Notes under the pieces: model-generated
Told to the model about the DNA's origin: nothing
The model's input: only the letters and a program-made list of their open reading frames with translations
Database searches by the model: none
Translations under genes and position numbers: made by a program
Part shown: positions 19,399 through 39,153 of the stretch, piece by piece
Layout: the number at the start of each line of letters is the position of its first letter
Numbering within the stretch: the first letter of the stretch is position 1
From: Chthoniobacteraceae bacterium
Lineage (GTDB): Bacteria > Verrucomicrobiota > Verrucomicrobiia > Chthoniobacterales > Chthoniobacteraceae
Assembly (NCBI GenBank): GCA_947471505.1
Contig: CANIWM010000010.1
Span: 1 to 64,000, forward strand
Direction: 5' to 3'
Length of the DNA stretch: 64,000 bases

Positions 19399-19463
19399 AC
19401 GGATATATCCAAGGTTGCGTCTGAGGCTTCCTTGCGCTTTTGTTCCGCCCCTTTTCACAAAAC

Positions 19464-21077
19464 ATGCAACTAGACTCAAGATTCCAAGAACGTATCGCCG
19501 TAATCGTCACGGTCGTCGTCGGCATTCTGAGCGCGATCTATCTTGGGAAGATGACGGCGCAAGGACAAGTCGGGATCATTTCGATGATTGTCCTTGGGGC
19601 TGCGGGAATAGCGAGTTTACTTCACTTTCGAGAGAGAGTATGGGTGATCATTCCAGTTCTTTGGCCCTTTTATGGGGCCGTTTTGATTCTCCCGCTTCCG
19701 TTTGCCTTAAAAGACATCGGGGTCATGGTTGGTTTCGCCTCAATCATTGTTTGTATTGCTCTTAAAATAGTGCGGATGCGGCCCAAATTCACCTATCTTG
19801 ATGCTTTTCTCTATTTGAATGCCCTCTGGTTGCTAGTAGCGTTTATTCGTAATCCTGTCGGATTCTTCGAGGCAGATAGTGAGCGAGTTGGGGGGCGTCC
19901 GTACGTCTCAGCAGTATTCGCTTTGCTTGCTTACTGGTCGCTGTGTCGCCTGACGACACCCGTTGAGACTATGAGAAGATTGCCGATGTACGTATTGGGC
20001 GGAGTTGCGCTAGTCTTTCTCGTAAACGTGCTCATGATCCTCGCCCCGGCGATAGCACCTTACGCGGCGGCATTCTACTCGGGCTTAGATTTATACTTTG
20101 TCGATGGAGTTTCCTCCACGATTTCGGGACCAAGCGCAAGTGAATCAGCGATTGATGCCGGAACTGTCCGAATTGAGGTTTTTCGCGATATTGGCCGGTA
20201 TATGGTGATCTTTCTCTGTGCTTACTTCTTCCCTCCCAGCATGTTGAATCCATTGAACTGGAAGCGCTGGTTGTTTTTTACGCTCGCGATGGTCGGCCTA
20301 TTGTTGTCCGGATTTAGGGGTTTCATTGTCTACGCGGCTGCAATTTTCGTTATCGGGACCTATTTTCGGAAGGGTTGGATCTCGGTCCTTCGGTCATCGG
20401 GCGGTGGCGCGTTGGTAGTATTGCTTATTATGCTCGGACATGGGACCTTGTATCAGCTCCCATTTGCTGCGCAGCGGGCTTTGGCAGTGATTCCCAGCGC
20501 ACTAAGACCGACAGAGTTTGAAGAAACCGCTGTTCTTGCTGGCGAATCCTCCACGGATTGGCGAGTAGAGATGTGGATTCAGGCGCTCACAACCAACCGC
20601 TATATCTCGGACAAAGTGATGGGTGACGGATTCGGGATGAACCGAGCGCAAATTGCAGCCTATCAGCGAGCAGCTACTCACGGAGCAATCTCGAATGAAG
20701 ACTCCCAAGAACACATGGCGATCTCCGGCGACTTCCACAGCGGGCCAATTTCAACCATTCGCGTCGTCGGTTATGTGGGATTATGTTTCGCCTACATGAT
20801 GATGATCGCGATGGCTCTACACTCCATAAAGCTCATCCGTCGTGCGAAAGGGACGCCGCTTTTTGAGCCGACATTGTTTTTTTTGATGCCCGTAGTCTTC
20901 GAGCCAATGTGGTTTTCATTCGTGTTTGGAGCCTATTCGATGTGGTTTCCTTTTGTAGCATTCAGTCTTGGGATGATGAAAGTTCTTGAGAATTCGCTGC
21001 TCTCGTTAGAGCACCCGAAACCGGTAACAGCCCCTGTTGCTGACTATCAGGAACCCGTTACGAGAGTGCTGGTATGA
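19464..21077 (+). CDS. Wzy/O-antigen-ligase-like polytopic membrane protein
   Basis: A 537-residue integral membrane protein with about 12 hydrophobic segments and one large extracytoplasmic loop in the C-terminal half (about residues 360-430, around GDGFGMNRAQIAAYQRA). This is the layout of O-antigen polymerases and ligases. These families vary strongly in sequence, so the call rests on topology and position between glf and a Wzx-like flippase. Its codons are visibly more A/T-rich than those of glf, as often seen in horizontally acquired antigen genes. The ATG at 19464 is chosen over a TTG at 19440. The stop overlaps the next start (ATGA). Confidence 0.7.
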   Translation: MQLDSRFQERIAVIVTVVVGILSAIYLGKMTAQGQVGIISMIVLGAAGIASLLHFRERVWVIIPVLWPFYGAVLILPLPFALKDIGVMVGFASIIVCIALKIVRMRPKFTYLDAFLYLNALWLLVAFIRNPVGFFEADSERVGGRPYVSAVFALLAYWSLCRLTTPVETMRRLPMYVLGGVALVFLVNVLMILAPAIAPYAAAFYSGLDLYFVDGVSSTISGPSASESAIDAGTVRIEVFRDIGRYMVIFLCAYFFPPSMLNPLNWKRWLFFTLAMVGLLLSGFRGFIVYAAAIFVIGTYFRKGWISVLRSSGGGALVVLLIMLGHGTLYQLPFAAQRALAVIPSALRPTEFEETAVLAGESSTDWRVEMWIQALTTNRYISDKVMGDGFGMNRAQIAAYQRAATHGAISNEDSQEHMAISGDFHSGPISTIRVVGYVGLCFAYMMMIAMALHSIKLIRRAKGTPLFEPTLFFLMPVVFEPMWFSFVFGAYSMWFPFVAFSLGMMKVLENSLLSLEHPKPVTAPVADYQEPVTRVLV

Positions 21078-22585
21078 GCGCGAGTGTCCGCTTTATGCGG
21101 GGCGTTTCCAGTAGTTGGGCGTCGATTGTCATTATTGCGGTCACTCAGATTTATCAGGTTCGGATTGCTCGTAGGGAGTTGAGTGAGGCGGAGTTTGCGC
21201 TGTTTGGGGTGTTGTCGAATTTGATTGCGGCGTTTTTGATCGCGGAGGTTGGGGTGCGGGCGTCGTTCTCGCGGCTGTTGCTGGATGCTCGCAATGAGGG
21301 TGGGGAGGCTTATCGCCGGTTTTGGGCTTCGGCGGCGATGGTGTTTCGGGTGCAGGGTCTTGCGATTGGGCTGCTCGCGCTGGCTTGCACGCCGTTTCTT
21401 GGCGACTGGTTTCATGTGGCGGACACTCAGTTGGCTACTGCACGGGCTGTTTTTTTGCTGCTCGGGGGGATTTCGGCGTTGGGGTATGCGTTTGGGCATC
21501 ACTCGGTTTCTCTGCTGGCAACTCAGCACTTCGTGGTGCCCAATTTTGTGTCCATCCTTGCTGGTGTGGCGGGGTTCGGGGCGTTCGTGCTTGGCATCCG
21601 AAACGGCTATGGCCTTTACTCTTACGTGTTCTCGGTGGTGCCGGGACTTTTCGCCGCGTGCGTGGTTTTTCCGCTCCTTACGAAGCGTCTCAAAATTGCT
21701 CCAACGGCGGGGATTCGCGATGTTTCTAAGGTGGAAATTCGGCGTATTTTTGTGCTCGGGTTCGATCTGTTTTGGGTGGCGCTCTACAACCTTATTTTGG
21801 GGCATACGCTGCTGCTATACGGAGGATTCCTTCTATCGGTGGCGGAACTCGCGATTCTCACGGTGAACCTGAAGTTTGTGCAGTTTGGGCTGCAAGTCGC
21901 GCAGCGGATTCCAGGGACGGCGGAGCCGGTGTTGGCTCAGATGGTGACGGTACAGGATTTTGTGCGCTTTCGCCCGAATTGGCTTCTTGCTGCGAAAGGT
22001 GCGCTGGGTTGCACGATTTTGGGGACGGGAATCTTGTATCTTTGGGCGGGTTTTGCGGTGGGGCACTGGACTTCACCTGCGGACCAAATGAGCCATTGGC
22101 CGCTGCTGATGGTCTGCCTTTTGCCACTGCGCTACATCGTGCATACGGTGTGCGTGCTCGCTTGCACGCTGTTCAAAGCGGCGAATCAGCTCCGCGTTGC
22201 GCTGGCTTGGGAGCTGGTGCTTTACACGGCGCTGGCGTTTCCGCTCGGGCGGGCTTTTGGCGTCGGCGGGCTGCTGGCGGCGAGTGTTTTCAGCCTGTTG
22301 GGCGGGTCACTGATTCCGGGGCTGCGGTTGGTGCGGCGGTTGGGGCAGTTTCCACCGGGAGTGGTGCCGGGGGCGATTGCTCGCACGCTTCTGCCGGGGT
22401 TTGCGCTGCTTTTCTTCGTCGCGGGGCTGGTGCCGCATCCTGAATCCATTGCGCTTTTAAATCGGTGCATCCTCACGCTCGGCTGGGCTGGTGCGGCTGT
22501 CGGGCTGGTTTGGTTTGCTGGACTGGACGGCGCGGAGCGGGTCGCGATTCGTGGAAAAATCGCGCTATTTCGGGGGCCCGCGTAA
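21074..22585 (+). CDS. Wzx-like oligosaccharide flippase
   Basis: A 503-residue membrane protein with about 12-14 helices, in the size and layout of the MOP/PST exporter superfamily (Wzx). It begins MSASVRFMRGVSSSWASIV, as such flippases often do, and follows the Wzy-like gene with a four-base overlap. It would move lipid-linked repeat units across the inner membrane. Codon use (many GTG, TTG and GGG) differs from the C-rich neighbours on both sides, which suggests a different origin. The specific substrate cannot be read from sequence. Confidence 0.75.
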   Translation: MSASVRFMRGVSSSWASIVIIAVTQIYQVRIARRELSEAEFALFGVLSNLIAAFLIAEVGVRASFSRLLLDARNEGGEAYRRFWASAAMVFRVQGLAIGLLALACTPFLGDWFHVADTQLATARAVFLLLGGISALGYAFGHHSVSLLATQHFVVPNFVSILAGVAGFGAFVLGIRNGYGLYSYVFSVVPGLFAACVVFPLLTKRLKIAPTAGIRDVSKVEIRRIFVLGFDLFWVALYNLILGHTLLLYGGFLLSVAELAILTVNLKFVQFGLQVAQRIPGTAEPVLAQMVTVQDFVRFRPNWLLAAKGALGCTILGTGILYLWAGFAVGHWTSPADQMSHWPLLMVCLLPLRYIVHTVCVLACTLFKAANQLRVALAWELVLYTALAFPLGRAFGVGGLLAASVFSLLGGSLIPGLRLVRRLGQFPPGVVPGAIARTLLPGFALLFFVAGLVPHPESIALLNRCILTLGWAGAAVGLVWFAGLDGAERVAIRGKIALFRGPA

Positions 22586-26340: not shown

Positions 26341-26831
26341 TCGACCCCGACGTAAAGCTCGGAGCCCGGGTGAAAATCTACAACCCCGAGCAAGTGAACA
26401 TCTTCGGCTGCACCATCGGCGACGACTCCTTCATCGGTCCCTTCGTAGAAATCACACGCGGCGTTGAAATCGGAGCCCGCTGCAAAATCGAAAGCCACTC
26501 CTTCCTCTGCACCGGCGTCATCATCGAAGACGACGTATTCATCGGCCATGGCGTCATGTTCACCAACGACAGCTACCCCCGAACCGACCGCCAAGTCGTC
26601 CACCCAAAAACCCGCGTCAAAAAATTCGCCAGCCTCGGCACCCACGCGACCATCCTCGGCGGCATCACCATCGGCGAGCACGCCGTCATCGGCGCAGGCG
26701 CAGTCGTCACCAAAGACATCCCCGACCTCGCCATCGCCATCGGCAACCCGGCGCGAATCGTTCGCCGCTTTGACTCACTCGCGGAGTTCAAAACATACAT
26801 TCAGGATCGGCAGAAATCGGCAACGCAATGA
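26337..26831 (+). CDS. Left-handed beta-helix acetyltransferase
   Basis: A 164-residue hexapeptide-repeat protein. Repeats such as IGDDSFIGPFVEI, VIIEDDVFIGHGVMF and GGITIGEHAVIGAGAVVTKDI form a left-handed beta-helix. It resembles the WbpD/FdtC-type N-acetyltransferases that acetylate the amino group set by the DegT enzyme encoded immediately upstream. It is coupled by four-base overlaps on both sides. The exact sugar is unknown. Confidence 0.88.
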   Translation: MIDPDVKLGARVKIYNPEQVNIFGCTIGDDSFIGPFVEITRGVEIGARCKIESHSFLCTGVIIEDDVFIGHGVMFTNDSYPRTDRQVVHPKTRVKKFASLGTHATILGGITIGEHAVIGAGAVVTKDIPDLAIAIGNPARIVRRFDSLAEFKTYIQDRQKSATQ

Positions 26832-28015
26832 TCCTGCTCGCTCGACTGCGAAATATCCTACAACGCGCGAAATTTCGGCGGCACACCTCAGTCGCGCAAA
26901 AAGCCGGTCCCGTGCGAGTGCTCGATTTTGCAGACGCACTTATAGGGCCGCCAAAAGGGCGAGCCCTAGTCATCTACTCCCCCGAGTCGCTGCAACGCTT
27001 CCGGGAGCACGGAAACTACCACTTTTTCAACCCCGACGGCGCGATGGTGGAGATATGCAAAGCATTGAATGAGAGCGGCTTCATTGTGGATGCCATCGGG
27101 ATTCGGGATGTCGAGTTTCACCTTGCCCACGACTACGATATCCTCGTCGCCCATGCAGGCCCCGCTTACTGCCACTTTGGAGAACTCGTCCGACCAGACT
27201 GCAAAGTCCTCGACTACAGTACCGGCTGTCATTGGCGGGAATTCAACCGGCAGACGGAGACGCGCTATGCCAACTTCGCGCACCGCCACGCGCTAGGCGA
27301 TTTGCCCCCGCCAATGCGACCGCTCGTCGTTGAGCATGAGGACTACGCCGCTGCCCGCTCAGACCTCATCGTCTGCCTCGGTGCCCCGACCGCGCGCACC
27401 TTTGAGCCATTCGCAAAGTGCGTTGTATCCGTGAACAATTCAGCCGTAGTTTCCGCAGCGCCGCCACCTCCGGTCTCGGAATTACGTCGCCGGTCGTTTC
27501 TCTACACTGGCGGCACTGGCAACGTGCAAAAGGGACTTGACCTCGTCATCGAAGCCTTCGCTTCCGAGCCAGATCTGCACCTGCACATTGACGCACCGCT
27601 GGAGCCAGAAGTCTTAGCTGCCTGCCGCCGCGAGCTTCGCGCACCCAACATCCACTATGTCGAGTGGAAGCGAAAAATCCTGGGCGGATCAAACCGGATC
27701 GCGCGCCGCTGCGCGTTTACAATTTACGCGGGACTAAACTCCGGCCAGTCCACCGCCGTCGTCGCTAGTCTCGCCTACGGACTTGTACCGGTCATGACTC
27801 GTGAATCCAGCCTCGGCCTTGGAGAACTCGAAGTGCCGATTGAAACAGCCTGTATAACAGATATTCGCGCCGCTATCCGAGGCGCCTCCGCACTTCCTAC
27901 CGAGGAAATTGCCCGTCGCGCTCCGCTCGTCGCAGCGGCATTTTGTGCGAGGTTTTCACCAGCCAATTTCCGCGGAGAGTTCCGCACTGCTATTGATTCG
28001 CTATCACCGCAATAG
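26828..28015 (+). CDS. GT4-like glycosyltransferase
   Basis: A 395-residue predicted GT-B glycosyltransferase. The N-terminal half carries FNPDGAMVEICKALNESGF and DILVAHAGP. The C-terminal half has the donor-binding stretch FLYTGGTGNVQKGLDLVIEA and LNSGQSTAVVASLAYGLVPVMT, in place of the usual EGFGLxxxEAMAxGxPV. A truncated relative of this C-terminal half is encoded at 28860-29438. It is the last gene of the tightly overlapping block that starts at 22633. The acceptor and donor are unknown. Confidence 0.75.
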   Translation: MILLARLRNILQRAKFRRHTSVAQKAGPVRVLDFADALIGPPKGRALVIYSPESLQRFREHGNYHFFNPDGAMVEICKALNESGFIVDAIGIRDVEFHLAHDYDILVAHAGPAYCHFGELVRPDCKVLDYSTGCHWREFNRQTETRYANFAHRHALGDLPPPMRPLVVEHEDYAAARSDLIVCLGAPTARTFEPFAKCVVSVNNSAVVSAAPPPPVSELRRRSFLYTGGTGNVQKGLDLVIEAFASEPDLHLHIDAPLEPEVLAACRRELRAPNIHYVEWKRKILGGSNRIARRCAFTIYAGLNSGQSTAVVASLAYGLVPVMTRESSLGLGELEVPIETACITDIRAAIRGASALPTEEIARRAPLVAAAFCARFSPANFRGEFRTAIDSLSPQ

Positions 28016-28117: not shown

Positions 28118-28867
28118 ATGAATCGCCCGCTTAAAGTTGCCTTTGGATTGAACGCCGCATCGCTTTTCCACCTGCTCAGACTAAAGCCTATGCAGTTCGC
28201 ACGAGCCAGTGTGCGGAGTTTTGAGGCTGCAATCGGGGTGCAGGAAATTCCCGAGATTGGCCTCAGTGAGATTTTGGGTGACAGAAAACCGTGCATTAAA
28301 CTGACCGTCATGCGCTATGAGGACGGAATGCTTCCCTCTGATCAAGCGATGGCGCTGCTGGCGATTCTAGTTGCCGAACAGCCATTATCAGTGCTCGAGA
28401 TCGGAACTTTTATGGGCCACACAACTCGGCAGATGGCTGAGAATCTTGAGCACTCAGAAATTCACACAGTCGATCTTCCCCCGAATTTCTCAAGCACCGC
28501 GCAACCTCCCGGAGCGATTCCCAAAGATGATTTTCACCTCATCGAAAAACGGGTTGTTGGGAGAGAGTATAAAGACCGCCCTTGTAGTGCGCGAATCACC
28601 CAACATTTTGCAGACACAGCTTCATGGGATTTTCAAGGAATCGGCATTCCGGCATTTTTCTTCATCGATGGTTCGCACACCTACGAGTATTGCAAGAATG
28701 ACTCTGATAAGTGTTTCGAATTAGCAAAGGGCAAGGGCGTTTTTTTGTGGCATGACTGTGACTCCCGCCACCCAGGCGTAGTAAAATGTATTTCCGAATG
28801 GAGACTTAAAGGCAGGGACGTCCGCAGAATTTACGGGACGCCGCTCGCTTACTGGAAGGGTGAATAA
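28118..28867 (+). CDS. Class I SAM-dependent methyltransferase (Methyltransf_24-like)
   Basis: A 249-residue protein with motif I VLEIGTFMGHTTRQMAE, then IHTVDLPP, and FFFIDGSHTYEYCKNDSD. The IDGSH motif is typical of the class I methyltransferases found in polysaccharide and cephalosporin-hydroxylase-like families. The DNA is less GC-rich than the cluster core. Its stop overlaps the GTG start of the truncated glycosyltransferase by eight bases. It sits between two related glycosyltransferase genes and may modify the same sugar. Confidence 0.8.
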   Translation: MNRPLKVAFGLNAASLFHLLRLKPMQFARASVRSFEAAIGVQEIPEIGLSEILGDRKPCIKLTVMRYEDGMLPSDQAMALLAILVAEQPLSVLEIGTFMGHTTRQMAENLEHSEIHTVDLPPNFSSTAQPPGAIPKDDFHLIEKRVVGREYKDRPCSARITQHFADTASWDFQGIGIPAFFFIDGSHTYEYCKNDSDKCFELAKGKGVFLWHDCDSRHPGVVKCISEWRLKGRDVRRIYGTPLAYWKGE

Positions 28868-29438
28868 GCGGGAAACGTATCCCCACGCCCCAATCTTTCT
28901 CGATTTCATGACTGGCAAGCTGATCCTTTACCAAGGTGGGAGAGGAAACATCCAAAAGGGCCTCGATTTACTGATAGAGGCATTTGCGGCGGAGCCTGTC
29001 GTCCATCTTTATATCGACTCCCCGATTGAGTTTGAGGCACTGAGCAATTACAAGACACAATTAAGTTTATCTAATATCCATTACTATGAATGGCAATCAA
29101 GGTTTCCCGGAGGAATGAGATCTATCTTAGAAAAATGCGCATTTGTGCTGCACGCAGGGATGAACTCTGGGCAATCTACGGCGCTGCTTGGCGCGCTGTA
29201 TCATGGTCTGGTTCCGGTCGTCACTCGGGATGCAAACCTGAACTTGGGTGCGCTTGAAGTTCCCATGGAGGAGGCCACCAGCTCCGCAATCCTTGCAGCA
29301 ATCCGTTCCGCCGCCGCTCTATCCCTTCCAGAGATCGCGAATCGCGCTCTACTCGTTGCCGCAGCATTCCGCGAACGCTTTTCCCCTGATGCCTACCGCA
29401 ACGGCTTCCGACGTGCCATCGCGAGTCTGGTTCTATGA
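28860..29438 (+). CDS. Truncated glycosyltransferase paralogue (C-terminal GT-B domain only)
   Basis: 192 residues that align along nearly their whole length with the C-terminal half of the 26828-28015 protein. Shared segments include GN(V/I)QKGLDL(V/L)IEAFA, NIHY-x-EW, LNSGQSTA versus MNSGQSTA, YHGLVPV, LEVP and LLVAAAF. The acceptor-binding N-terminal domain is missing. Start choices are a GTG at 28860 or an ATG at 28908. It may be a remnant of a duplicated gene, or a half-enzyme working with another protein. Its stop overlaps the GT9 gene by four bases, so it is probably still translated. Confidence 0.75.
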   Translation: MNKRETYPHAPIFLDFMTGKLILYQGGRGNIQKGLDLLIEAFAAEPVVHLYIDSPIEFEALSNYKTQLSLSNIHYYEWQSRFPGGMRSILEKCAFVLHAGMNSGQSTALLGALYHGLVPVVTRDANLNLGALEVPMEEATSSAILAAIRSAAALSLPEIANRALLVAAAFRERFSPDAYRNGFRRAIASLVL

Positions 29439-30762: not shown

Positions 30763-31560
30763 ATGCCGAAAATCTCTGTCGTTACTGCCTGCTGGAACTT
30801 TGGGTCATTCATCGGTAAAGCCCTTGAAAGTGTGGCAAGCCAGGGATGGGAGGACTACGAGCACATCGTTATTGATAATTGCTCGACGGACAACACCGCC
30901 GAGATCGTCAAAAAATACCCCAAAGTGCGCTTCATCTCGGAGCCTGACCGTGGCCAAAGTGACGCTATCAATAAGGGCTTTCGGCTGGCGACAGGCGATG
31001 TCATCGCGTGGCTCAATGCCGATGAATACTACCTCCCCGATACCTTCAAAACAGTGATGTCCACCTTCGCACAATCGCCCGATCTCGACGTGCTTTACGG
31101 AGATGCGGTCCTTTTACACGCAGACGGAAAGCCGTGGCGGCGGAAGTGCGCGTTTGATTTCCGCGAGTATCTTCTGAAGTACTACGGCTGCTTTTTACTC
31201 ACCTGCACGACCTTCTTACGGCGGCGATTTGTGGATGAGAACATCCTTCTGGATGAAAGCCTGCACTTTCACATGGACCACGATTTTTTCCTCCGGCTGA
31301 TGAAGGCCGACTTCCGCTTCCGCAGGCTCCGGCGCTTCCTCGGATGCTTTTGCGTGCACGATGTAAGTAAAACCAGCAACCCCGCTACATTCGGCAAACG
31401 GATGGCCGAGCGGGAACTCATCCAGGCCAACTATTGCCCCAGATTTTCACCCGACGCCGCGACCAATCGTCTCGTTTACCTCGCCATCACGTACGTCCTG
31501 AAAGCCGTTACATTTCCCTCGCGGGCGTTGAATCGTGTGCTCCCTCCGCCCCGAGTTTAG
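30763..31560 (+). CDS. GT2 glycosyltransferase
   Basis: A 265-residue GT-A-fold enzyme. It begins PKISVVTACWNFGSFIGKALES, then IDNCSTDNTAEIV and SEPDRGQSDAINKGF, and the metal-binding acidic motif WLNADEYY. A single domain of normal length with no membrane helix. It would add one sugar during repeat-unit assembly. It ends the plus-strand run and overlaps the convergent deacetylase stop by three bases. Confidence 0.88.
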   Translation: MPKISVVTACWNFGSFIGKALESVASQGWEDYEHIVIDNCSTDNTAEIVKKYPKVRFISEPDRGQSDAINKGFRLATGDVIAWLNADEYYLPDTFKTVMSTFAQSPDLDVLYGDAVLLHADGKPWRRKCAFDFREYLLKYYGCFLLTCTTFLRRRFVDENILLDESLHFHMDHDFFLRLMKADFRFRRLRRFLGCFCVHDVSKTSNPATFGKRMAERELIQANYCPRFSPDAATNRLVYLAITYVLKAVTFPSRALNRVLPPPRV

Positions 31561-32370: not shown

Positions 32371-34668
32371 ATGCCCGTTTCACCGCCTGAATTTTTCCAG
32401 CTTTTCTTCTCGGAACTCGAGAAGCGCGGCATCCCAGCGGTGATCCTTCACGGCTACGAGGAGCTGCCAGAGGTGATGTCGAGTGATGTGGATTACGCGG
32501 TGCGCGAATGCGACCGGGCGAAGATGCGGGCGCTGCAATACGAGCTGGCGGAGCGGCACGGGTGGCTGGTTGCGCAGGAATTGCGGCATCAGGTTTTTGC
32601 CAGTTACACGGTGCTGGTGGATGCGGCGGACCCTGCAAATTTCCTGAAGCTCGACGTGTGTTCGCACTATGTGAAAGACCGCTGCTTCCTCGTGCCGGAC
32701 GAGATTCTGCTGGCAGGGCGGCGTCCGCTGCGCGGCTTTTTTGTGCCCGCTCCGGCGGCGGAGTTCATCTATGTGCTGGCGAAGGTTTTTGGGAAAAATA
32801 AGGACCCGCAGCCGTTCGTGGCGCGTCTCCGTGAGCTTTGGGAACTGGACCGGTCGGGCGCGGAGTCGCAGTTTGCGAGGCTCCTGGGCGACGACTTGGG
32901 CAGCGCGGAATCGTGGCTCGCTCGCCCGACTTCCGAGTGGGCTCAACTCGATGCGCGGATGCGTTCGCGCAACCGCTACAGCGCGGCGGTGATGCTGCGC
33001 GAGGTGGGGCGGATGGCGCGGCGCGTGGTGAATCACACGGGCTTGTGCATCGCGATTCTTGGCGTGGATGGCGCGGGGAAATCGACGCAGATCGAGCGAC
33101 TGCGGGTGCGCGAGTGCTTTCGCAATGTGAAGTATTTTCACTTCCGCCCGATGGTCTTCGAGCGTCGCAACGGCCAGACTGCACCAGTGACGAATCCGCA
33201 CGGGCAAGAGCCGCGCAGCCCGCTGGCGAGCATCGCGAAAGTCGCCTACTACGCGGCGGATCAGTTCGCCGGCTGGTGGCTGCGCGTGGCTCCCGCGATT
33301 GCTCGCAGCTCGCTCGTGGTTTTTGATCGGTGGTTCGACGACATCCTCGTGGACCAGCGCCGATACCGGCTCTCAGCCGGCGCTGGCTTTGCAAAATTGC
33401 TGCGCCGATTTCTGCCGAAGCCGCATCTCACCATCGCGCTCGACGCGCCGCCGGAAGTCGCACGAGCCCGGACGCCAGAGCTGGAGCCCGCGGAGATCGA
33501 GAGGCAGCGCGGCGTCTTCCGCCAGCTCGCTGCGGAGAACGCAAACTGGCACATCGTATCGAGCGTGCCCGCGCCGGATGATGTCGCACGGGAGGTCGGC
33601 GGGCGGATCGCAGCGTTCCTCGCGACGCGGGAAAGGCGGCGCTCGGGCATCGGCGCGTGGGCGGCATTGTTTCGCTCGGGCGGCGGGGTGGAGCTGAAAA
33701 TGCGGACGGTTTATCGCGGCGGCGAGCCGTGGCTGGCGCTGCCGCGAGATACTGCGCTGGCTCGCGCTGCGCTGGCGCTTTATCCCGCACAGACACGCAA
33801 AGCCCGCGTGCTCCGCGACATGCTCGGCTTTGCGTTGAGCGTTGGCTGGCCGGGCGCGACGATGTTTCGCATCGCGATGGATGATCCATTTCTCGCCTTC
33901 ATCGAGCGATGCGGCGGCAGCGCGGAACGGTTCGCTGTTTTGCCCGGCAATCCGCGAGCGGCGGGGCGACGGCATACGGTTCTCGTTTTCAATAAGGCAG
34001 GTGCGCCGGTCGCCGTGATCAAAGCTGGGCTAGGTGCGCGTGCGTGCGAGTTGATTCACCGCGAGCGCGAGTTTCTCGCTGCCGCTCCGCGCGATGCCGC
34101 TGGGCTCGTCGCTTCTTGGGACGGCGAGCACGCGGCGGCGTTTGCGACCACCTTTGCCGCTGGGCGAACGCCGGAGCCAGCGGACGATGCGGCGCTTTCG
34201 GAAATCCTCACTCGGTGGGTGAGCAGCGACTCCGTGGAAGCATCCGCGATTAAACCACTTGCCGATGTGATGGCGGCGGTGCCCGCGAGTCGCGACCTGT
34301 TCGCGGGAACGTTCCGCGAGTCGCTCTGGCACGGCGATTTTGCCTCCTGGAACATCCGCATCGCAGGCGACGGGCGCTGGCAAGTGCTCGACTGGGAACG
34401 CGCCGAACGCTGCGGCCCGCCGGGCTGGGATTGGTTCCATTTTATCATCCAACGCGCCGTGCTCGTGGAGCGCCGCAGCGTGCCGGAACTCACCGCGCTG
34501 GCCGACGCGCTGCTTGCCAGCCCGCCGTTCCGCAGCTACGCCGAACGGTCTGGCATCTCGGGGACCGCCCCCGCGCTTTTTGCCGCATACCTTATGCACT
34601 GTATCCATGTCGTTCGTCAGGCAGACGGGCGCACCGCGCTCGAAGGACTTCTCGCCGCCCGCGTATGA
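32371..34668 (+). CDS. Three-domain fusion: nucleotidyltransferase-like, thymidylate-kinase-like and APH-kinase-like
   Basis: A 765-residue protein. Residues 1-200 resemble a minimal nucleotidyltransferase fold (VILHGYEELPEVMSSDVDYAV with the D-x-D). Residues about 225-415 form a P-loop kinase of thymidylate-kinase type, with Walker A GVDGAGKST at 231-239 and the DR motif VVFDRWFDDILVD. Residues about 430-765 look like an aminoglycoside-phosphotransferase/choline-kinase fold, with HGDFASWN at 654-661 and the metal-binding DWE at 674-676. All three active sites look intact. The stop overlaps the start of the GT4-sensor gene. Phosphorylation of a sugar or lipid-sugar is plausible, but the substrate is unknown. 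Confidence 0.8.
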   Translation: MPVSPPEFFQLFFSELEKRGIPAVILHGYEELPEVMSSDVDYAVRECDRAKMRALQYELAERHGWLVAQELRHQVFASYTVLVDAADPANFLKLDVCSHYVKDRCFLVPDEILLAGRRPLRGFFVPAPAAEFIYVLAKVFGKNKDPQPFVARLRELWELDRSGAESQFARLLGDDLGSAESWLARPTSEWAQLDARMRSRNRYSAAVMLREVGRMARRVVNHTGLCIAILGVDGAGKSTQIERLRVRECFRNVKYFHFRPMVFERRNGQTAPVTNPHGQEPRSPLASIAKVAYYAADQFAGWWLRVAPAIARSSLVVFDRWFDDILVDQRRYRLSAGAGFAKLLRRFLPKPHLTIALDAPPEVARARTPELEPAEIERQRGVFRQLAAENANWHIVSSVPAPDDVAREVGGRIAAFLATRERRRSGIGAWAALFRSGGGVELKMRTVYRGGEPWLALPRDTALARAALALYPAQTRKARVLRDMLGFALSVGWPGATMFRIAMDDPFLAFIERCGGSAERFAVLPGNPRAAGRRHTVLVFNKAGAPVAVIKAGLGARACELIHREREFLAAAPRDAAGLVASWDGEHAAAFATTFAAGRTPEPADDAALSEILTRWVSSDSVEASAIKPLADVMAAVPASRDLFAGTFRESLWHGDFASWNIRIAGDGRWQVLDWERAERCGPPGWDWFHFIIQRAVLVERRSVPELTALADALLASPPFRSYAERSGISGTAPALFAAYLMHCIHVVRQADGRTALEGLLAARV

Positions 34669-36521
34669 AAGTCCTCGTCTCTGCATACGCCTGCGAGCCG
34701 GACCGTGGCTCCGAGCCGGAAGTCGGCTGGCAGACAGCTACACACCTCGCGCAGATTCACGAAGTCACCGTGCTCACGCGGGCGAACAACCGCCCCATCA
34801 TCGAAAACAGGCTCGCGACGCTGGAAGGGAAATATCCCTCTTTCATCTACTACGATCTGCCGCGCTGGCTCATTTGGCTGAAAAAACGCGGCATGAGCGT
34901 GGCGATCTACTATTTCCTGTGGCAGCTCGGCGCACGGCTGCACATGCGCGGCAAGCTGGAGCCGTTCGACGTCATCCACCACTGCACGTTCAACTCGTTC
35001 CGACAGCCGGGCTTTTGGTGGCTCACTAAAAGGGCTGTGGTCATCGGCCCACTTGGCGGTGGGCAGGTGTGCCCGTGGAATTTTTTGCCGTGGTTTCGCA
35101 AGCAGTTGCTCTACGAGGTTTTCCGATCGCTCACCGTATTGTGCGGCTATGTGCTGCCGCAGATCCTCACGAGTATGCTCTCGGCTCGCCGAATACTTGT
35201 GGCCAATTCGGACACGCTCAAGTGCATCCCGTGGTTCTTCCGCGCGAAGTCCGTACAGATGCTCGAAACCGCTGTCACACCCGACCAGATCGTTGAGCGT
35301 ACGGAACAGAACCACTCAGGCCCCCCGCGTTTTCTCTGGATCAGCCGACTCGATAAACTGAAAGGCTGCGAGTTGGCCATTCGGGCATACGCTTTGGCTC
35401 TCGCTGAAAATCCAGACATTCGGCTGACGATAGGCGGAGCTGGGCCGGAAGAGAAGCCGCTCCGCTCTCTCATTGCCCGCCTCGGCATCAAGCACGCGGT
35501 GGATTGGCGCGGGCGCATACCGAAAGAAGAAGTCACATCCGTGATGGCAGCACACGATGCCTTCCTTTTCACCAGCCTACGCGACACCTCGGGCAACGTG
35601 ATGCTCGAAGCGATGGCCGTCGGGATGCCGGTAATCACCTTCGCGCATCATGGAGCCGTCGAGATTTCCACCGAGGAGACGGCGCTGCGCGTGCCCGTCA
35701 CCACTTCCAAAGAAACCATCGCGGGGATGAAGACCGCCATGCTGCGTCTAGCCGCCGATCCGGCTCTCTCGCGGCGACTCGGCGTCGCGGGCCAGCAGAG
35801 GGTAAAAGATATGTTCACATGGAAAGCACAGGCTGCGCGATTGAGCCACGTTTTCCATGCGGCGGTGGAAGAGCAAAAAGTGCTCGATACGCTGCAAAAA
35901 CGCACGTTCGAGGCGCTCTTTTCCATTCGTGGCGTCTTCTTCGCACTGGTCTTTGCGATGGCCATCGCCGTCTTGGAGTTCGGCGTCGTACGCACCCTGC
36001 AATCGCGGACCGAGAGCGTCGTGGCGCACACGCTACCGCGCCTCAGCCGCATAGCCGACGCCAATGCAATGCTCACAGAATCGTTCACCAACACGGTCAT
36101 CGCGGTGAACTCGCCGGATGCCGCCGAACAGGCGCGCTGCATCGCCAAAGTAGAAATCTTGAGCCCAAAGACCACCGAAGCTCTCGAGGCCTACGAGCGA
36201 CTGCGCGAGCCGGGAACCGACGACCCGATTTTCCAAATCCTGCTCGCACACCGGAAAGAATACCTCGCCCGACGAGGTGACGTCTTCAGCCTCCTTCGCG
36301 CTGGAAAAAGCGCGGAAGCAATGGCGATCTACAAGGCCACCGTCATGCCCTCCTACGACGCCTACCAGCGTGCGGGGGATGTGTTGCTCCAAACCAACAT
36401 CCAAGAGGGCAGCGACAAAGGCGCGTCGCTCTTGTGGATTTGCCGAATCACCGAAATCGCGCTCGTTTTAACTGCTGTGATCATCTTCGTCTTTGGATTC
36501 ACCGTCGGTTTCTCACGTTAG
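34665..36521 (+). CDS. GT4 glycosyltransferase fused to a membrane four-helix-bundle sensor domain
   Basis: A 618-residue protein. Residues 1-405 are a GT4 enzyme: MKVLVSAYACEPDRGSEPEVGW, FLWISRLDKLKGCELAIRA and LRDTSGNVMLEAMAVGMPVI. After a short linker comes TM1 (about 422-445), then about 140 residues of helical extracytoplasmic sequence like the 4HB_MCP sensor of chemoreceptors (SRIADANAMLTESF, EYLARRGDVFSLLRAGKSAEA, YDAYQRAGD), and TM2 (about 588-616). The protein ends right after TM2, so no HAMP or signalling output follows. The glycosyltransferase sits where the output would be, on the N-terminal cytoplasmic side. It overlaps the trifunctional gene by four bases. Confidence 0.82.
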   Translation: MKVLVSAYACEPDRGSEPEVGWQTATHLAQIHEVTVLTRANNRPIIENRLATLEGKYPSFIYYDLPRWLIWLKKRGMSVAIYYFLWQLGARLHMRGKLEPFDVIHHCTFNSFRQPGFWWLTKRAVVIGPLGGGQVCPWNFLPWFRKQLLYEVFRSLTVLCGYVLPQILTSMLSARRILVANSDTLKCIPWFFRAKSVQMLETAVTPDQIVERTEQNHSGPPRFLWISRLDKLKGCELAIRAYALALAENPDIRLTIGGAGPEEKPLRSLIARLGIKHAVDWRGRIPKEEVTSVMAAHDAFLFTSLRDTSGNVMLEAMAVGMPVITFAHHGAVEISTEETALRVPVTTSKETIAGMKTAMLRLAADPALSRRLGVAGQQRVKDMFTWKAQAARLSHVFHAAVEEQKVLDTLQKRTFEALFSIRGVFFALVFAMAIAVLEFGVVRTLQSRTESVVAHTLPRLSRIADANAMLTESFTNTVIAVNSPDAAEQARCIAKVEILSPKTTEALEAYERLREPGTDDPIFQILLAHRKEYLARRGDVFSLLRAGKSAEAMAIYKATVMPSYDAYQRAGDVLLQTNIQEGSDKGASLLWICRITEIALVLTAVIIFVFGFTVGFSR

Positions 36522-36523
36522 CC

Positions 36524-37501
36524 ATGCAACGCACCACACTCGCCCGCTCTGGCATCGAAATTTCCCGCGCCGCTTTTGGCTGCGCACGACTCGGCGGCAC
36601 CGTGGAACGCTTCGACAAGCGCGAGGCGATTGCTGTGCTCAATCGCGCCTTCGACGCCGGGATCAACCTCTTCGACACAGCGGACATCTACGCGCAGGGA
36701 AACAGCGAGAAGCTGCTCGGCGAGACGTTTCGCGGGCGGCGCGACCAAGTCGTGCTCGCGACGAAGGGCGGCTACGTTTTCTCCACCGCAGCGTCCTTTC
36801 TCTCGAAGCTCAAGCCGCTAATCCGCAAGCTCATGAAGCTCCGCCCCGGCCTCGCGAAGATGGCGAAAAAGGCGCGCGGCTCACAGATACGGCAGGACTT
36901 TTCACGCGAGCATTTGGCCAAGGCGCTCGACGCCAGTTTGAAGCGGCTCGGCACCGACTACGTGGACCTTTATCAGCTCCACAGCCCGTCTGCCGAAGTG
37001 CTCACGGACGGCGCGGTATTCGCCACGCTAGAGTCGTTTCGAGCGGCGGGAAAGATTCGCGCTTTTGGCGTTTCCATCCTCCAGCAAGAGCACGGGTTCG
37101 ATTGTCTCGGCGCGGATGCTTTGCAGGTCGAAGCACACTTTTTGAAGCCCGCGGCTATCCGGGGAATCGTCCCCGCCGCCGCCGCGAAAGGAGTCGCCAC
37201 GCTCGCTCGGCAGCCTTTCGGTTCCGGCCTGCTCGCGCGCTCGCCGGAGCTATGGGCAGCGGATGATTTCGGCGGCGACGCCACGTTGCTCGCTGGTGCT
37301 CGGGAGCGGATGAAGCGCATCGCCGCACTTGGCGAGCCGACCGAACTCGCGCTGCGCTACCTGCTGCATCACTCCGGTTTTTCCGCCGTGCTTTTCGCCA
37401 CGACGCGCCTCGAAAACCTCGCGAAAAACTTGAAGACGCTTGCCTCGCCCGCCCTCGCCGAGAGCGACGTGAAGCAGCTCGAAAACATCCTTTTTCCATG
37501 A
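36524..37501 (+). CDS. Aldo/keto reductase
   Basis: 325 residues with a TIM-barrel aldo/keto reductase layout: FGCARLGG, GINLFDTADIYAQGNSEKLLGE (catalytic Asp and Tyr), LATKGGY (Lys), YVDLYQLHSPSAEV (His) and a C-terminal LFATTRLENLAKNLK cofactor-binding region. The full catalytic tetrad appears present. It would reduce or oxidise a sugar or carbonyl compound with NADP(H). The start follows the GT4-sensor stop by two bases and its stop overlaps the GMC gene (ATGA), so the three or four genes form one operon. Confidence 0.88.
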   Translation: MQRTTLARSGIEISRAAFGCARLGGTVERFDKREAIAVLNRAFDAGINLFDTADIYAQGNSEKLLGETFRGRRDQVVLATKGGYVFSTAASFLSKLKPLIRKLMKLRPGLAKMAKKARGSQIRQDFSREHLAKALDASLKRLGTDYVDLYQLHSPSAEVLTDGAVFATLESFRAAGKIRAFGVSILQQEHGFDCLGADALQVEAHFLKPAAIRGIVPAAAAKGVATLARQPFGSGLLARSPELWAADDFGGDATLLAGARERMKRIAALGEPTELALRYLLHHSGFSAVLFATTRLENLAKNLKTLASPALAESDVKQLENILFP

Positions 37502-39153
37502 TCGAAGACGCCCGCCACATCCCCGCTGGAACTGAACTCGAATGCGATGTCGTCGTCGTCGGATCGGGTGCTGCTGGTGCAACGCTGGCGTGCGAACTCA
37601 TCGACAGCGGGCTGAGCGTCATCGTGCTTGAAGGCGGCGGATTTGCCTTCGACCCGAAGGCACAGGAACTCTATCGCGGCGAGGTGGACGACAAAGGTCG
37701 GCACGGCGAACTCACGCGCTACCGCCGCCGGATGTTTGGCGGCACGACGACGGTGTGGGGCGGGCGGTGTGCGCCGTTTGACGCGATTGATTTTGAGGCA
37801 CGTCCGTGGGTTCCGCATAGCGGCTGGCCGGTCACACGCTCGGAACTGGACCCGTTTTACCAACGCGCCCACGCCTACGCTCACGCGGGCAACTACACCT
37901 ACGAATCTTCGTCGCTGCCCGACGGAGCGAAGCCGCTCGTCCCCGGCCTCGATTCCGAGGTCGTGCTGCAAGACCGGATGTGGCGTTTCAGCCTGCCGAC
38001 AGACTTCGGGAAAACGAACCGCGCTCGCTTGGAGAAAGCCGCCAACGTGCGTCTGCTGATGCACGCCAACGCGCTCCAAGTGAAGACCGACGCGACCGGC
38101 AAACACGCCGAACGGCTCCGCGTCGCCACGCTGGAAGGGAAGGAGTTTTCCGTGAAGGCACGCTTCATCGCGCTCGCGGCAGGCGGCATCGAAGTCACAC
38201 GGCTGCTGCTGCTTTCCAACGACACAAACCCCGACGGACTCGGCAACGAGCACGGCCTTCTCGGGCGCTTCTACGGCTCGCACGTCTCCGGCGACCTCGG
38301 CGAAGTCGCGCTCACCGACAAAGCTCGCGATGCCATCTGGACTTACGAGCAAGGGCGCGACGGCGTGTATTGCAAACGGCACCTCCGCATCGCCGAAGAA
38401 ACGCAGCGGCGGCTCGGCCTGCTCAACTACCGCTGCACGCTCACGCACCCACCTTTCGGCGACCCGTCGCACCGCAGCGCCGTGCTCTCCGCCGCGTATC
38501 TCGTGAAGCGATTTCTCACGCACCAAATCCCGCCGGAGTTTTCCAAAGACATGGCGAGCCGCGAATACCACCACGTCCGCGAACACATCCGCAACGTCGT
38601 GCTCGGCTCGCCGGGGCTCGTAGGCTTTGGGCTGCACTGGTTTTTCAAACGGACCATCGCCACGCGCAAATACCCGTCCGTCTCGCTGCGCAGTAAAGCA
38701 AACCGCTACACGCTCCACTTCGACGCCGAACAAGCGCCAAACCCCGACAGCCGAATCGTGCTCGGCGACCAACTGGACCAGTTCGGCCTCCGCCGCGTAC
38801 GCGTGCTGTGGAAAACCTCCGAACTCGACAGCCACAGCGTCGGCGAATGTCACCGCGTCCTGACCGAAGAATTCGCCCGCACCGGCGCTGGAAAAGTCGA
38901 ACTCCCGCACACCGAAGCTGCCCGAATCATTCGCGATGAAAGCGGCGTCGGCAGCCACCATATCGGCTCCACGCGCATGGCTGACGACCCGAAACAGGGC
39001 GTCGTGGACCGCAACGCCCGCGTGCATTCCGTGGACAATCTCTTCATCGCCGCGCCGTCCATTTTCTGCACCGCGAGCTTCGCCAATCCCGTGCTCACCA
39101 CTGCGGCCTTCGCTGTCCGCCTCGGCGATCACATCAAGGCGGTAGCGCGTTAG
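37498..39153 (+). CDS. GMC-family FAD oxidoreductase
   Basis: A 551-residue flavoprotein of the glucose-methanol-choline family. The FAD motif VVVGSGAAGATLA is at residues 19-31, with FGGTTTVWGGRCAP for flavin binding and the C-terminal catalytic region VGSHHIGSTRMADDP plus NLFIAAPSIFCTASFANP. No signal peptide is present. In polysaccharide loci such enzymes oxidise sugar hydroxyls (inference). It is coupled to the aldo/keto reductase, which suggests an oxidation-reduction pair acting on one sugar. Confidence 0.85.
   Translation: MIEDARHIPAGTELECDVVVVGSGAAGATLACELIDSGLSVIVLEGGGFAFDPKAQELYRGEVDDKGRHGELTRYRRRMFGGTTTVWGGRCAPFDAIDFEARPWVPHSGWPVTRSELDPFYQRAHAYAHAGNYTYESSSLPDGAKPLVPGLDSEVVLQDRMWRFSLPTDFGKTNRARLEKAANVRLLMHANALQVKTDATGKHAERLRVATLEGKEFSVKARFIALAAGGIEVTRLLLLSNDTNPDGLGNEHGLLGRFYGSHVSGDLGEVALTDKARDAIWTYEQGRDGVYCKRHLRIAEETQRRLGLLNYRCTLTHPPFGDPSHRSAVLSAAYLVKRFLTHQIPPEFSKDMASREYHHVREHIRNVVLGSPGLVGFGLHWFFKRTIATRKYPSVSLRSKANRYTLHFDAEQAPNPDSRIVLGDQLDQFGLRRVRVLWKTSELDSHSVGECHRVLTEEFARTGAGKVELPHTEAARIIRDESGVGSHHIGSTRMADDPKQGVVDRNARVHSVDNLFIAAPSIFCTASFANPVLTTAAFAVRLGDHIKAVAR

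What the first reader, a model, noticed from the sequence alone, without database searches (positions are those of the whole stretch)
32371..34668. Three-domain fusion of nucleotidyltransferase-like, thymidylate-kinase-like and APH-kinase-like domains
Three different nucleotide-using folds are joined in one 765-residue protein, and each keeps its signature residues: the D-x-D after SSDVD, Walker A GVDGAGKST plus DRW, and HGDFASWN plus DWE. I know of no named family with this combination. Inside a polysaccharide locus it could phosphorylate and modify a sugar or lipid intermediate in sequence.
Basis: partly seen in the sequence, partly recalled or inferred. Interest (0 to 1): 0.75.

Follow-up and report, generated by a model that had tools for sequence, protein, structure and literature searches.

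The report
Fused three-enzyme sugar-coat modification module
A bacterial gene for making the sugary cell coat joins three nucleotide-using enzymes in one protein; the same three enzymes sit side by side, or are fused in other combinations, in several unrelated bacterial groups, which points to an undescribed pathway for decorating coat sugars, though its substrate is unknown.

Summary
The 765-residue ORF is real and all three domains are as described: a Pol-beta-type nucleotidyltransferase (NT, residues 1-205), a thymidylate-kinase-fold P-loop kinase (TMK, 222-415) and an APH/choline-kinase-fold kinase (430-765). Each keeps its catalytic residues and is under purifying selection. The fusion is a minor form of something larger. 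The same three families form a conserved module inside polysaccharide loci of Verrucomicrobiota, Pseudomonadota (Leisingera, Agrobacterium, Legionella) and Bacteroidota (Hymenobacter); a Streptomyces locus shows only TMK and APH. Usual forms are separate genes or NT-TMK plus APH. Rearranged fusions exist: TMK-APH, and APH-NT-TMK in Hymenobacter. In 388 phylum genomes NT, TMK and APH hits fall in the same few genomes, within about 5 kb of each other. The TMK domain is not a dTMP kinase: it scores far below that family's cut-off, lacks the thymine-contact motifs, and the genome has a true Tmk elsewhere. No Pfam or NCBIfam family covers the whole protein, and no paper in the library searched describes the trio. 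Best reading: an enzyme set that activates and attaches a phosphate-type substituent to the repeat unit of a Wzx/Wzy-type polysaccharide. Substrate, order and products are inferred, not shown.

The parts
32371..34668 (+). Triple-fusion protein NT-TMK-APH, 765 aa
   Evidence: translate and ORF list; orthologs; dN/dS
32371..32985 (+). NT domain (residues 1-205), Pol-beta nucleotidyltransferase fold
   Evidence: AlphaFold2 model and structure search; alignment A3
32479..32493 (+). SSDVD, metal-binding D-x-D (D39, D41) of NT
   Evidence: D39 in 17 of 18 and D41 in 18 of 18 family members that have letters there
32653..32655 (+). D95 (FLKLD), probable third metal carboxylate of NT
   Evidence: D in 17 of 19 members, read from alignment A3
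33034..33615 (+). TMK-fold P-loop kinase domain (residues 222-415)
   Evidence: PF02223; PDB TMK profile match
33061..33087 (+). Walker A GVDGAGKST
   Evidence: sequence; G and K invariant in 22 members
33325..33333 (+). DRW motif of the TMK domain
   Evidence: R invariant in 22 members
33646..34665 (+). APH/choline-kinase-fold kinase domain with an N-terminal extension of about 80 residues (residues 426-765)
   Evidence: PF01636; model and structure search
34330..34353 (+). HGDFASWN catalytic loop
   Evidence: H, D, N invariant in 22 members
34390..34398 (+). DWE metal-binding motif
   Evidence: D and E invariant in 22 members
34665..36521 (+). GT4 glycosyltransferase with C-terminal 4HB_MCP-like region; its start overlaps the stop of the fusion (ATGA)
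   Evidence: sequence; Pfam; GT4 next to the module in most loci
30763..31560 (+). GT2 glycosyltransferase upstream, as the GT2 that precedes the module in many relatives
   Evidence: Pfam; neighbourhoods
19440..22585 (+). Two multi-spanning membrane proteins (about 10 and 11 predicted segments), polymerase- and flippase-like candidates
   Evidence: hydropathy count only, no Pfam match

Best explanation
The protein is a fused form of a conserved three-enzyme module (NT, TMK-fold kinase, APH-fold kinase) that works in the cytoplasm on the building blocks of a Wzx/Wzy-type exopolysaccharide. Most likely it makes and attaches a phosphate-type substituent. The APH-like kinase puts a phosphate on a hydroxyl of a small alcohol or a sugar. 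The TMK-fold kinase adds a further phosphate to a phosphorylated, non-thymidine acceptor. The nucleotidyltransferase transfers a nucleotidyl or phospho-alcohol group, in the manner of ANT(2'') or LicD/FKRP. The neighbouring GT2 and GT4 enzymes then use or carry the modified unit. Shown: the three folds, intact catalytic residues, purifying selection, co-occurrence, clustering, and alternative fusions. Inferred: that all three act in one pathway. Guessed: the substrate, the order of steps, the product.
For: Three folds and their motifs. Purifying selection on every domain. Co-occurrence over 388 phylum genomes: NT strong in 13, TMK strong in 14, APH in 15; 13 of 13 NT genomes have TMK and 13 of 14 TMK genomes have APH, p about 1e-21 to 1e-23. 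Four loci found by NT and TMK without use of APH (L104-L107) all hold APH nearby, E 1e-20 to 5e-46 with a profile not trained on them. Alternative fusions: TMK-APH (L052), APH-NT-TMK in Hymenobacter (L062), NT-TMK-sugar transferase PF02397 (L025), APH-GT2 (L049). A single clade of the window fusion with the Hymenobacter or the L052 fusion is disfavoured (p-AU 0.02 and 4e-15). Polysaccharide setting in several phyla with flippase, Wzy/O-antigen ligase, Wzz and initiating sugar transferase. TMK domain not a dTMP kinase.
Against: No activity, substrate or product is known for any member. One APH-only locus (L023) and the Streptomyces locus without a detected NT show that the trio is not obligatory. 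L025 has lost two NT carboxylates and L055 one, so NT catalysis may be dispensable in places. Fold similarity does not give the substrate. Profiles were trained partly on loci picked by APH, which inflates the co-occurrence figures; the four independent loci are the cleaner test. The TMK-acceptor argument rests on sequence alignment only.
Confidence: 0.45

Rival explanations
1. LicA/LicD-like route: the APH domain is a kinase for choline, ethanolamine or a polyol, NT is a LicD/FKRP-type transferase that moves phospho-alcohol from a CDP-alcohol to a sugar, and the TMK-fold domain recycles the released nucleoside monophosphate.
For: APH model's best structural match is LicA (Z 13.8, tied with other choline kinases) and best sequence match too (4r77, E 3e-4); FKRP is among the NT matches; LicD-type NTases act in capsule polymers (PMC11666461).
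Against: No cytidylyltransferase gene was found as a constant neighbour; NT does not match Pfam LicD; NT is closer to MenT1 and ANT(2'') than to FKRP by structure; choline-kinase Pfam matches only 1 of 22 members.
Confidence: 0.2
2. Chain-end capping or length control: the kinases and NT cap the non-reducing end of the polysaccharide, as the WbdD kinase-methyltransferase does for E. coli O9a.
For: WbdD appears among weak sequence and structure matches of the APH domain; the genes lie between glycosyltransferases.
Against: No methyltransferase is fused; WbdD caps serve ABC-transporter-dependent polymers (general knowledge), whereas the annotated loci here have Wzx/Wzy components.
Confidence: 0.12
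3. Nucleotide supply: the TMK domain is a dTMP kinase that feeds dTDP-sugar synthesis in the locus.
For: TMK fold and Walker A; dTDP-rhamnose genes lie near some copies.
Against: 36 bits against the equivalog cut-off of 83; thymine-contact motifs lost; the genome's own dTMP kinase scores 143 bits elsewhere.
Confidence: 0.05
4. Toxin-antitoxin-like unit: NT is a MenT/TglT-like tRNA-modifying toxin and the APH-like domain a TakA-like kinase antitoxin.
For: MenT1 and TglT are top structural matches of NT; TglT is neutralised by the kinase TakA in M. tuberculosis (general knowledge).
Against: Constant placement among glycosyltransferases, fusions to a sugar transferase and a GT2, a third kinase in the set, no convincing PADLOC match.
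Confidence: 0.04

Closest known systems
LicA/LicC/LicD phosphocholine decoration pathway
   Same: APH/choline-kinase-fold kinase plus an NTase-superfamily enzyme acting in surface polysaccharide synthesis
   Different: No LicC found; a TMK-fold kinase is part of the set; NT does not match the LicD Pfam family; domains fused
WbdD kinase-methyltransferase (E. coli O9a)
   Same: Protein-kinase-like-fold enzyme fused to another domain in an O-polysaccharide locus
   Different: WbdD pairs a kinase with a methyltransferase and caps chains; here NT and TMK domains, and Wzx/Wzy-type loci
ANT(2'')-Ia and APH(3') aminoglycoside-modifying enzymes
   Same: Folds and catalytic residues of the NT and APH domains; both act on hydroxyls of sugar-like molecules
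   Different: Resistance enzymes on single antibiotics, not clustered with polysaccharide genes; low sequence identity (10-18%)
dTMP kinase (Tmk)
   Same: Fold, Walker A, DR motif
   Different: dTMP recognition motifs replaced by conserved HW(R/K)P, PHG(K/Q) and DRY..D...DP.RYR; not the housekeeping copy

Membership tests
Thymidylate_kin superfamily (PF02223) | Pfam gathering score and P-loop | tested here: met
   40.8 bits vs 27; GVDGAGKST
dTMP kinase (TIGR00041 equivalog) | Equivalog cut-off 83.25 bits | tested here: not met
   36.2 bits; relatives 26-43 bits
dTMP kinase (TIGR00041 equivalog) | Thymine-contact motifs (LLFxAxR, DRYxxSxxAYQ) | tested here: not met
   YYAADQFAG and DRWFDDILVD instead; compared with the genome's own Tmk and PDB TMK alignments
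APH superfamily (PF01636) | Pfam gathering score | tested here: met
   27.3 bits vs 23.2 for the domain alone
APH superfamily (PF01636) | Catalytic Lys, Glu, HGDxxxxN and D-x-E | tested here: met
   K126, E140, H229, D231, N236, D249, E251 of the domain invariant in 22 members
Aminoglycoside 3'-phosphotransferase (NF033068) | Equivalog cut-off 205 bits | tested here: not met
   no hit for the window protein; 19 bits for relative L056
Choline kinase LicA | Phosphorylates choline; licC and licD partners | tested here: inconclusive
   Fold Z 13.8, PF01633 in 1 of 22; no LicC/LicD recognised nearby; activity untested
Pol-beta nucleotidyltransferase superfamily | NTase fold with D-x-D and third carboxylate | tested here: met
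   fold; residues
NTP_transf_5 (PF14907) | Pfam gathering score | tested here: inconclusive
   No match for the window domain; one distant relative 27.2 bits vs 31.2
LicD (PF04991) | Pfam match | tested here: inconclusive
   No Pfam LicD match in 19 members; FKRP among structural matches
WbdD | Kinase fused to methyltransferase | tested here: not met
   No methyltransferase domain in the protein
TglT-TakA / MenT-MenA toxin-antitoxin | tRNA-modifying NTase with neutralising partner | tested here: inconclusive
   Fold similarity only; activity not testable here

The most novel reading that the evidence does not exclude
NT, TMK-fold kinase and APH-fold kinase are the three dedicated enzymes of an undescribed, horizontally spread pathway that installs a new phosphate- or nucleotidyl-based substituent on bacterial exopolysaccharides of several phyla.
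Probability: 0.4. Interest if true: 0.72.

Novelty: new variant of a known kind. Interest (0 to 1): 0.55.

Why it matters
Genes labelled 'thymidylate kinase', 'phosphotransferase' or 'hypothetical protein' in polysaccharide loci can be read as one unit, which turns three annotation blanks into one testable pathway. If true it would reveal a surface-polysaccharide modification shared by several phyla, and new tools for phosphorylating or nucleotidylating glycans. The fusions give ready-made single proteins for in vitro work.

Tried and rejected
Whole-protein searches of Pfam, NCBIfam, PHROGs and PADLOC gave only the TMK domain convincingly. NT profile against PDB sequences gave nothing significant. 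A wider scan centred on another phylum was not possible, so the spread outside Verrucomicrobiota rests on plasmid records only. Ten literature searches found no description of the trio; Kuchta et al. 2009, the NTase classification, is not held. Nonomuraea hit H8 is an MFS transporter fused to a TMK scoring 159 bits on PF02223, not this family. The dTMP-kinase reading was considered and rejected.

Full report
Observation. The ORF at 32371-34668 is intact and 765 aa long. Its stop overlaps the start of the next gene, a GT4 glycosyltransferase, as ATGA, so the two are likely translated together. The genome (6.07 Mb, 153 contigs) is close to a MAG named Prosthecobacter debontii, which holds a 93%-identical ortholog of the whole fusion. 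A third, truncated copy (71%) is in G025. dN/dS is 0.05-0.10 for NT and TMK and about 0.2 for APH in both comparisons, so each domain is maintained.

Domains. TMK: Pfam PF02223 over its cut-off; the family profile matches PDB thymidylate kinases at E 7e-15. APH: the isolated domain passes PF01636 (27.3 bits against 23.2) and 20 of 22 relatives match it; the model (pLDDT 93.1, pTM 0.88) aligns best, as tied rows, with LicA and human choline kinases (Z 13.8, rmsd 3.4-3.6, 228-245 residues), amicoumacin kinase and APH(3')-Ia. About 80 residues precede the usual kinase N-lobe. NT: no sequence match, but the model (pLDDT 89.5, pTM 0.86) aligns with MenT1 (Z 11.8, rmsd 3.8, 162 residues), ANT(2'')-Ia (Z 10.9, rmsd 4.1, 161 residues) and LnuA (Z 9.2); Foldseek also lists FKRP. 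Catalytic residues: NT D39 and D41 nearly invariant, D95 in 17 of 19; APH K, E, H, D, N, D, E all invariant in 22 members; TMK P-loop Gly-Lys, the Arg of DR and the later R and E invariant.

The TMK domain is not a dTMP kinase. It scores 36 bits against an equivalog cut-off of 83. The genome has a proper dTMP kinase on contig 31 (143 bits). Aligned with that protein and with Plasmodium TMK, the residues known to contact the thymine base are replaced, and the family carries its own conserved motifs: HW(R/K)P, PHG(K/Q) and DRY..D...DP.RYR. The Arg/Lys of HW(R/K)P may stand for the phosphate-binding Arg of TMKs, which would suit a phosphorylated, non-thymidine acceptor; this is inference from alignment and general knowledge of TMK structures, and several members have Ile there.

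The fusion is one form of a module. Within the family, residues 1-424 and 427-763 match separate neighbouring genes. With profiles of the three parts, nearly every complete locus contains all three within a few kilobases, in different arrangements: three genes (L031, L049, L051, L053, L055), NT-TMK plus APH (L024, L026-L028, L030, L050, L054, L056, L057, L104-L107), TMK-APH plus NT (L052), and the triple fusion (window, L033, L003). Other fusions tie the module to polysaccharide synthesis: NT-TMK-PF02397 initiating sugar transferase (L025), APH-GT2 (L049), APH with a PMT-like region (L104). Plasmid records extend it to Leisingera, Agrobacterium, Legionella and Hymenobacter, and in part to Streptomyces, where TMK and a weakly matching phosphotransferase were seen but no NT. 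The Hymenobacter protein (823 aa) is a triple fusion in the order APH-NT-TMK. On the TMK tree the window fusions are one clade (100/100); a common clade with the Hymenobacter fusion has p-AU 0.02 and with the L052 fusion 4e-15, so APH was most likely joined more than once; the groups were named after the tree was seen.

Co-occurrence. Among 388 genomes of the phylum NT is strong in 13, TMK in 14 and APH in 15; all 13 NT genomes have TMK and 13 of 14 TMK genomes have APH (the fourteenth, G267, has it by the local search), on the same contigs within about 5 kb (p 2e-23 and 2e-21). The profiles were trained partly on APH-selected loci, so the cleaner test is the four loci that NT and TMK found anew: all four carry APH nearby, E 1e-20 to 5e-46 with a profile not trained on them. 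Exceptions: L023 has APH alone; the APH genes of G413 and G061 lie at contig edges.

Setting. A common order is GT2, NT-TMK, APH, GT4. In annotated plasmid loci the neighbours include flippase, EpsG/O-antigen ligase, Wzz, Wzc and sugar transferase. The window locus has GT2, GT9, GT4, deacetylase, methyltransferase, sugar-nucleotide enzymes and two multi-spanning proteins. The patchy spread fits horizontal transfer of polysaccharide genes.

Mechanism. Fusion, clustering and co-inheritance make it likely that the three enzymes serve one pathway. The folds suggest phosphorylation of a hydroxyl (APH), phosphorylation of a phosphorylated acceptor (TMK) and nucleotidyl or phospho-alcohol transfer (NT). 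I think a phosphate-type substituent on the repeat unit is the most likely product (0.45). The LicA/LicD-like version is the main rival (0.2). No paper in the held library describes the set; this is a limited library, so prior description elsewhere cannot be excluded.

Noticed in passing
window 34665-36521: GT4 glycosyltransferase with a C-terminal stretch matching 4HB_MCP_1 (E 1e-13) and two predicted membrane segments; GT4 genes of similar length lie next to APH in L024 and L028.
   Followed up: partly
L065 474-1205 and 1208-1933 (G000 contig 54): Two further divergent TMK-like genes in tandem in the window's genome (76 and 67 bits, under the dTMP kinase cut-off).
   Followed up: no
L023 7935-9929: APH-family protein fused to a C-terminal membrane region, with no NT or TMK within the 17 kb held.
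   Followed up: no
window 26828-28015 and 28860-29438: Two related ORFs of one BLAST cluster (395 and 192 aa); the shorter looks like a truncated glycosyltransferase (weak GT1 match).
   Followed up: no
window 36434-39153: Aldo-keto reductase and GMC oxidoreductase pair next to the module, also found beside the module in L024.
   Followed up: no
L024 6380-7690 and 12147-13475: Two NT-TMK copies in one locus with a single APH gene.
   Followed up: no
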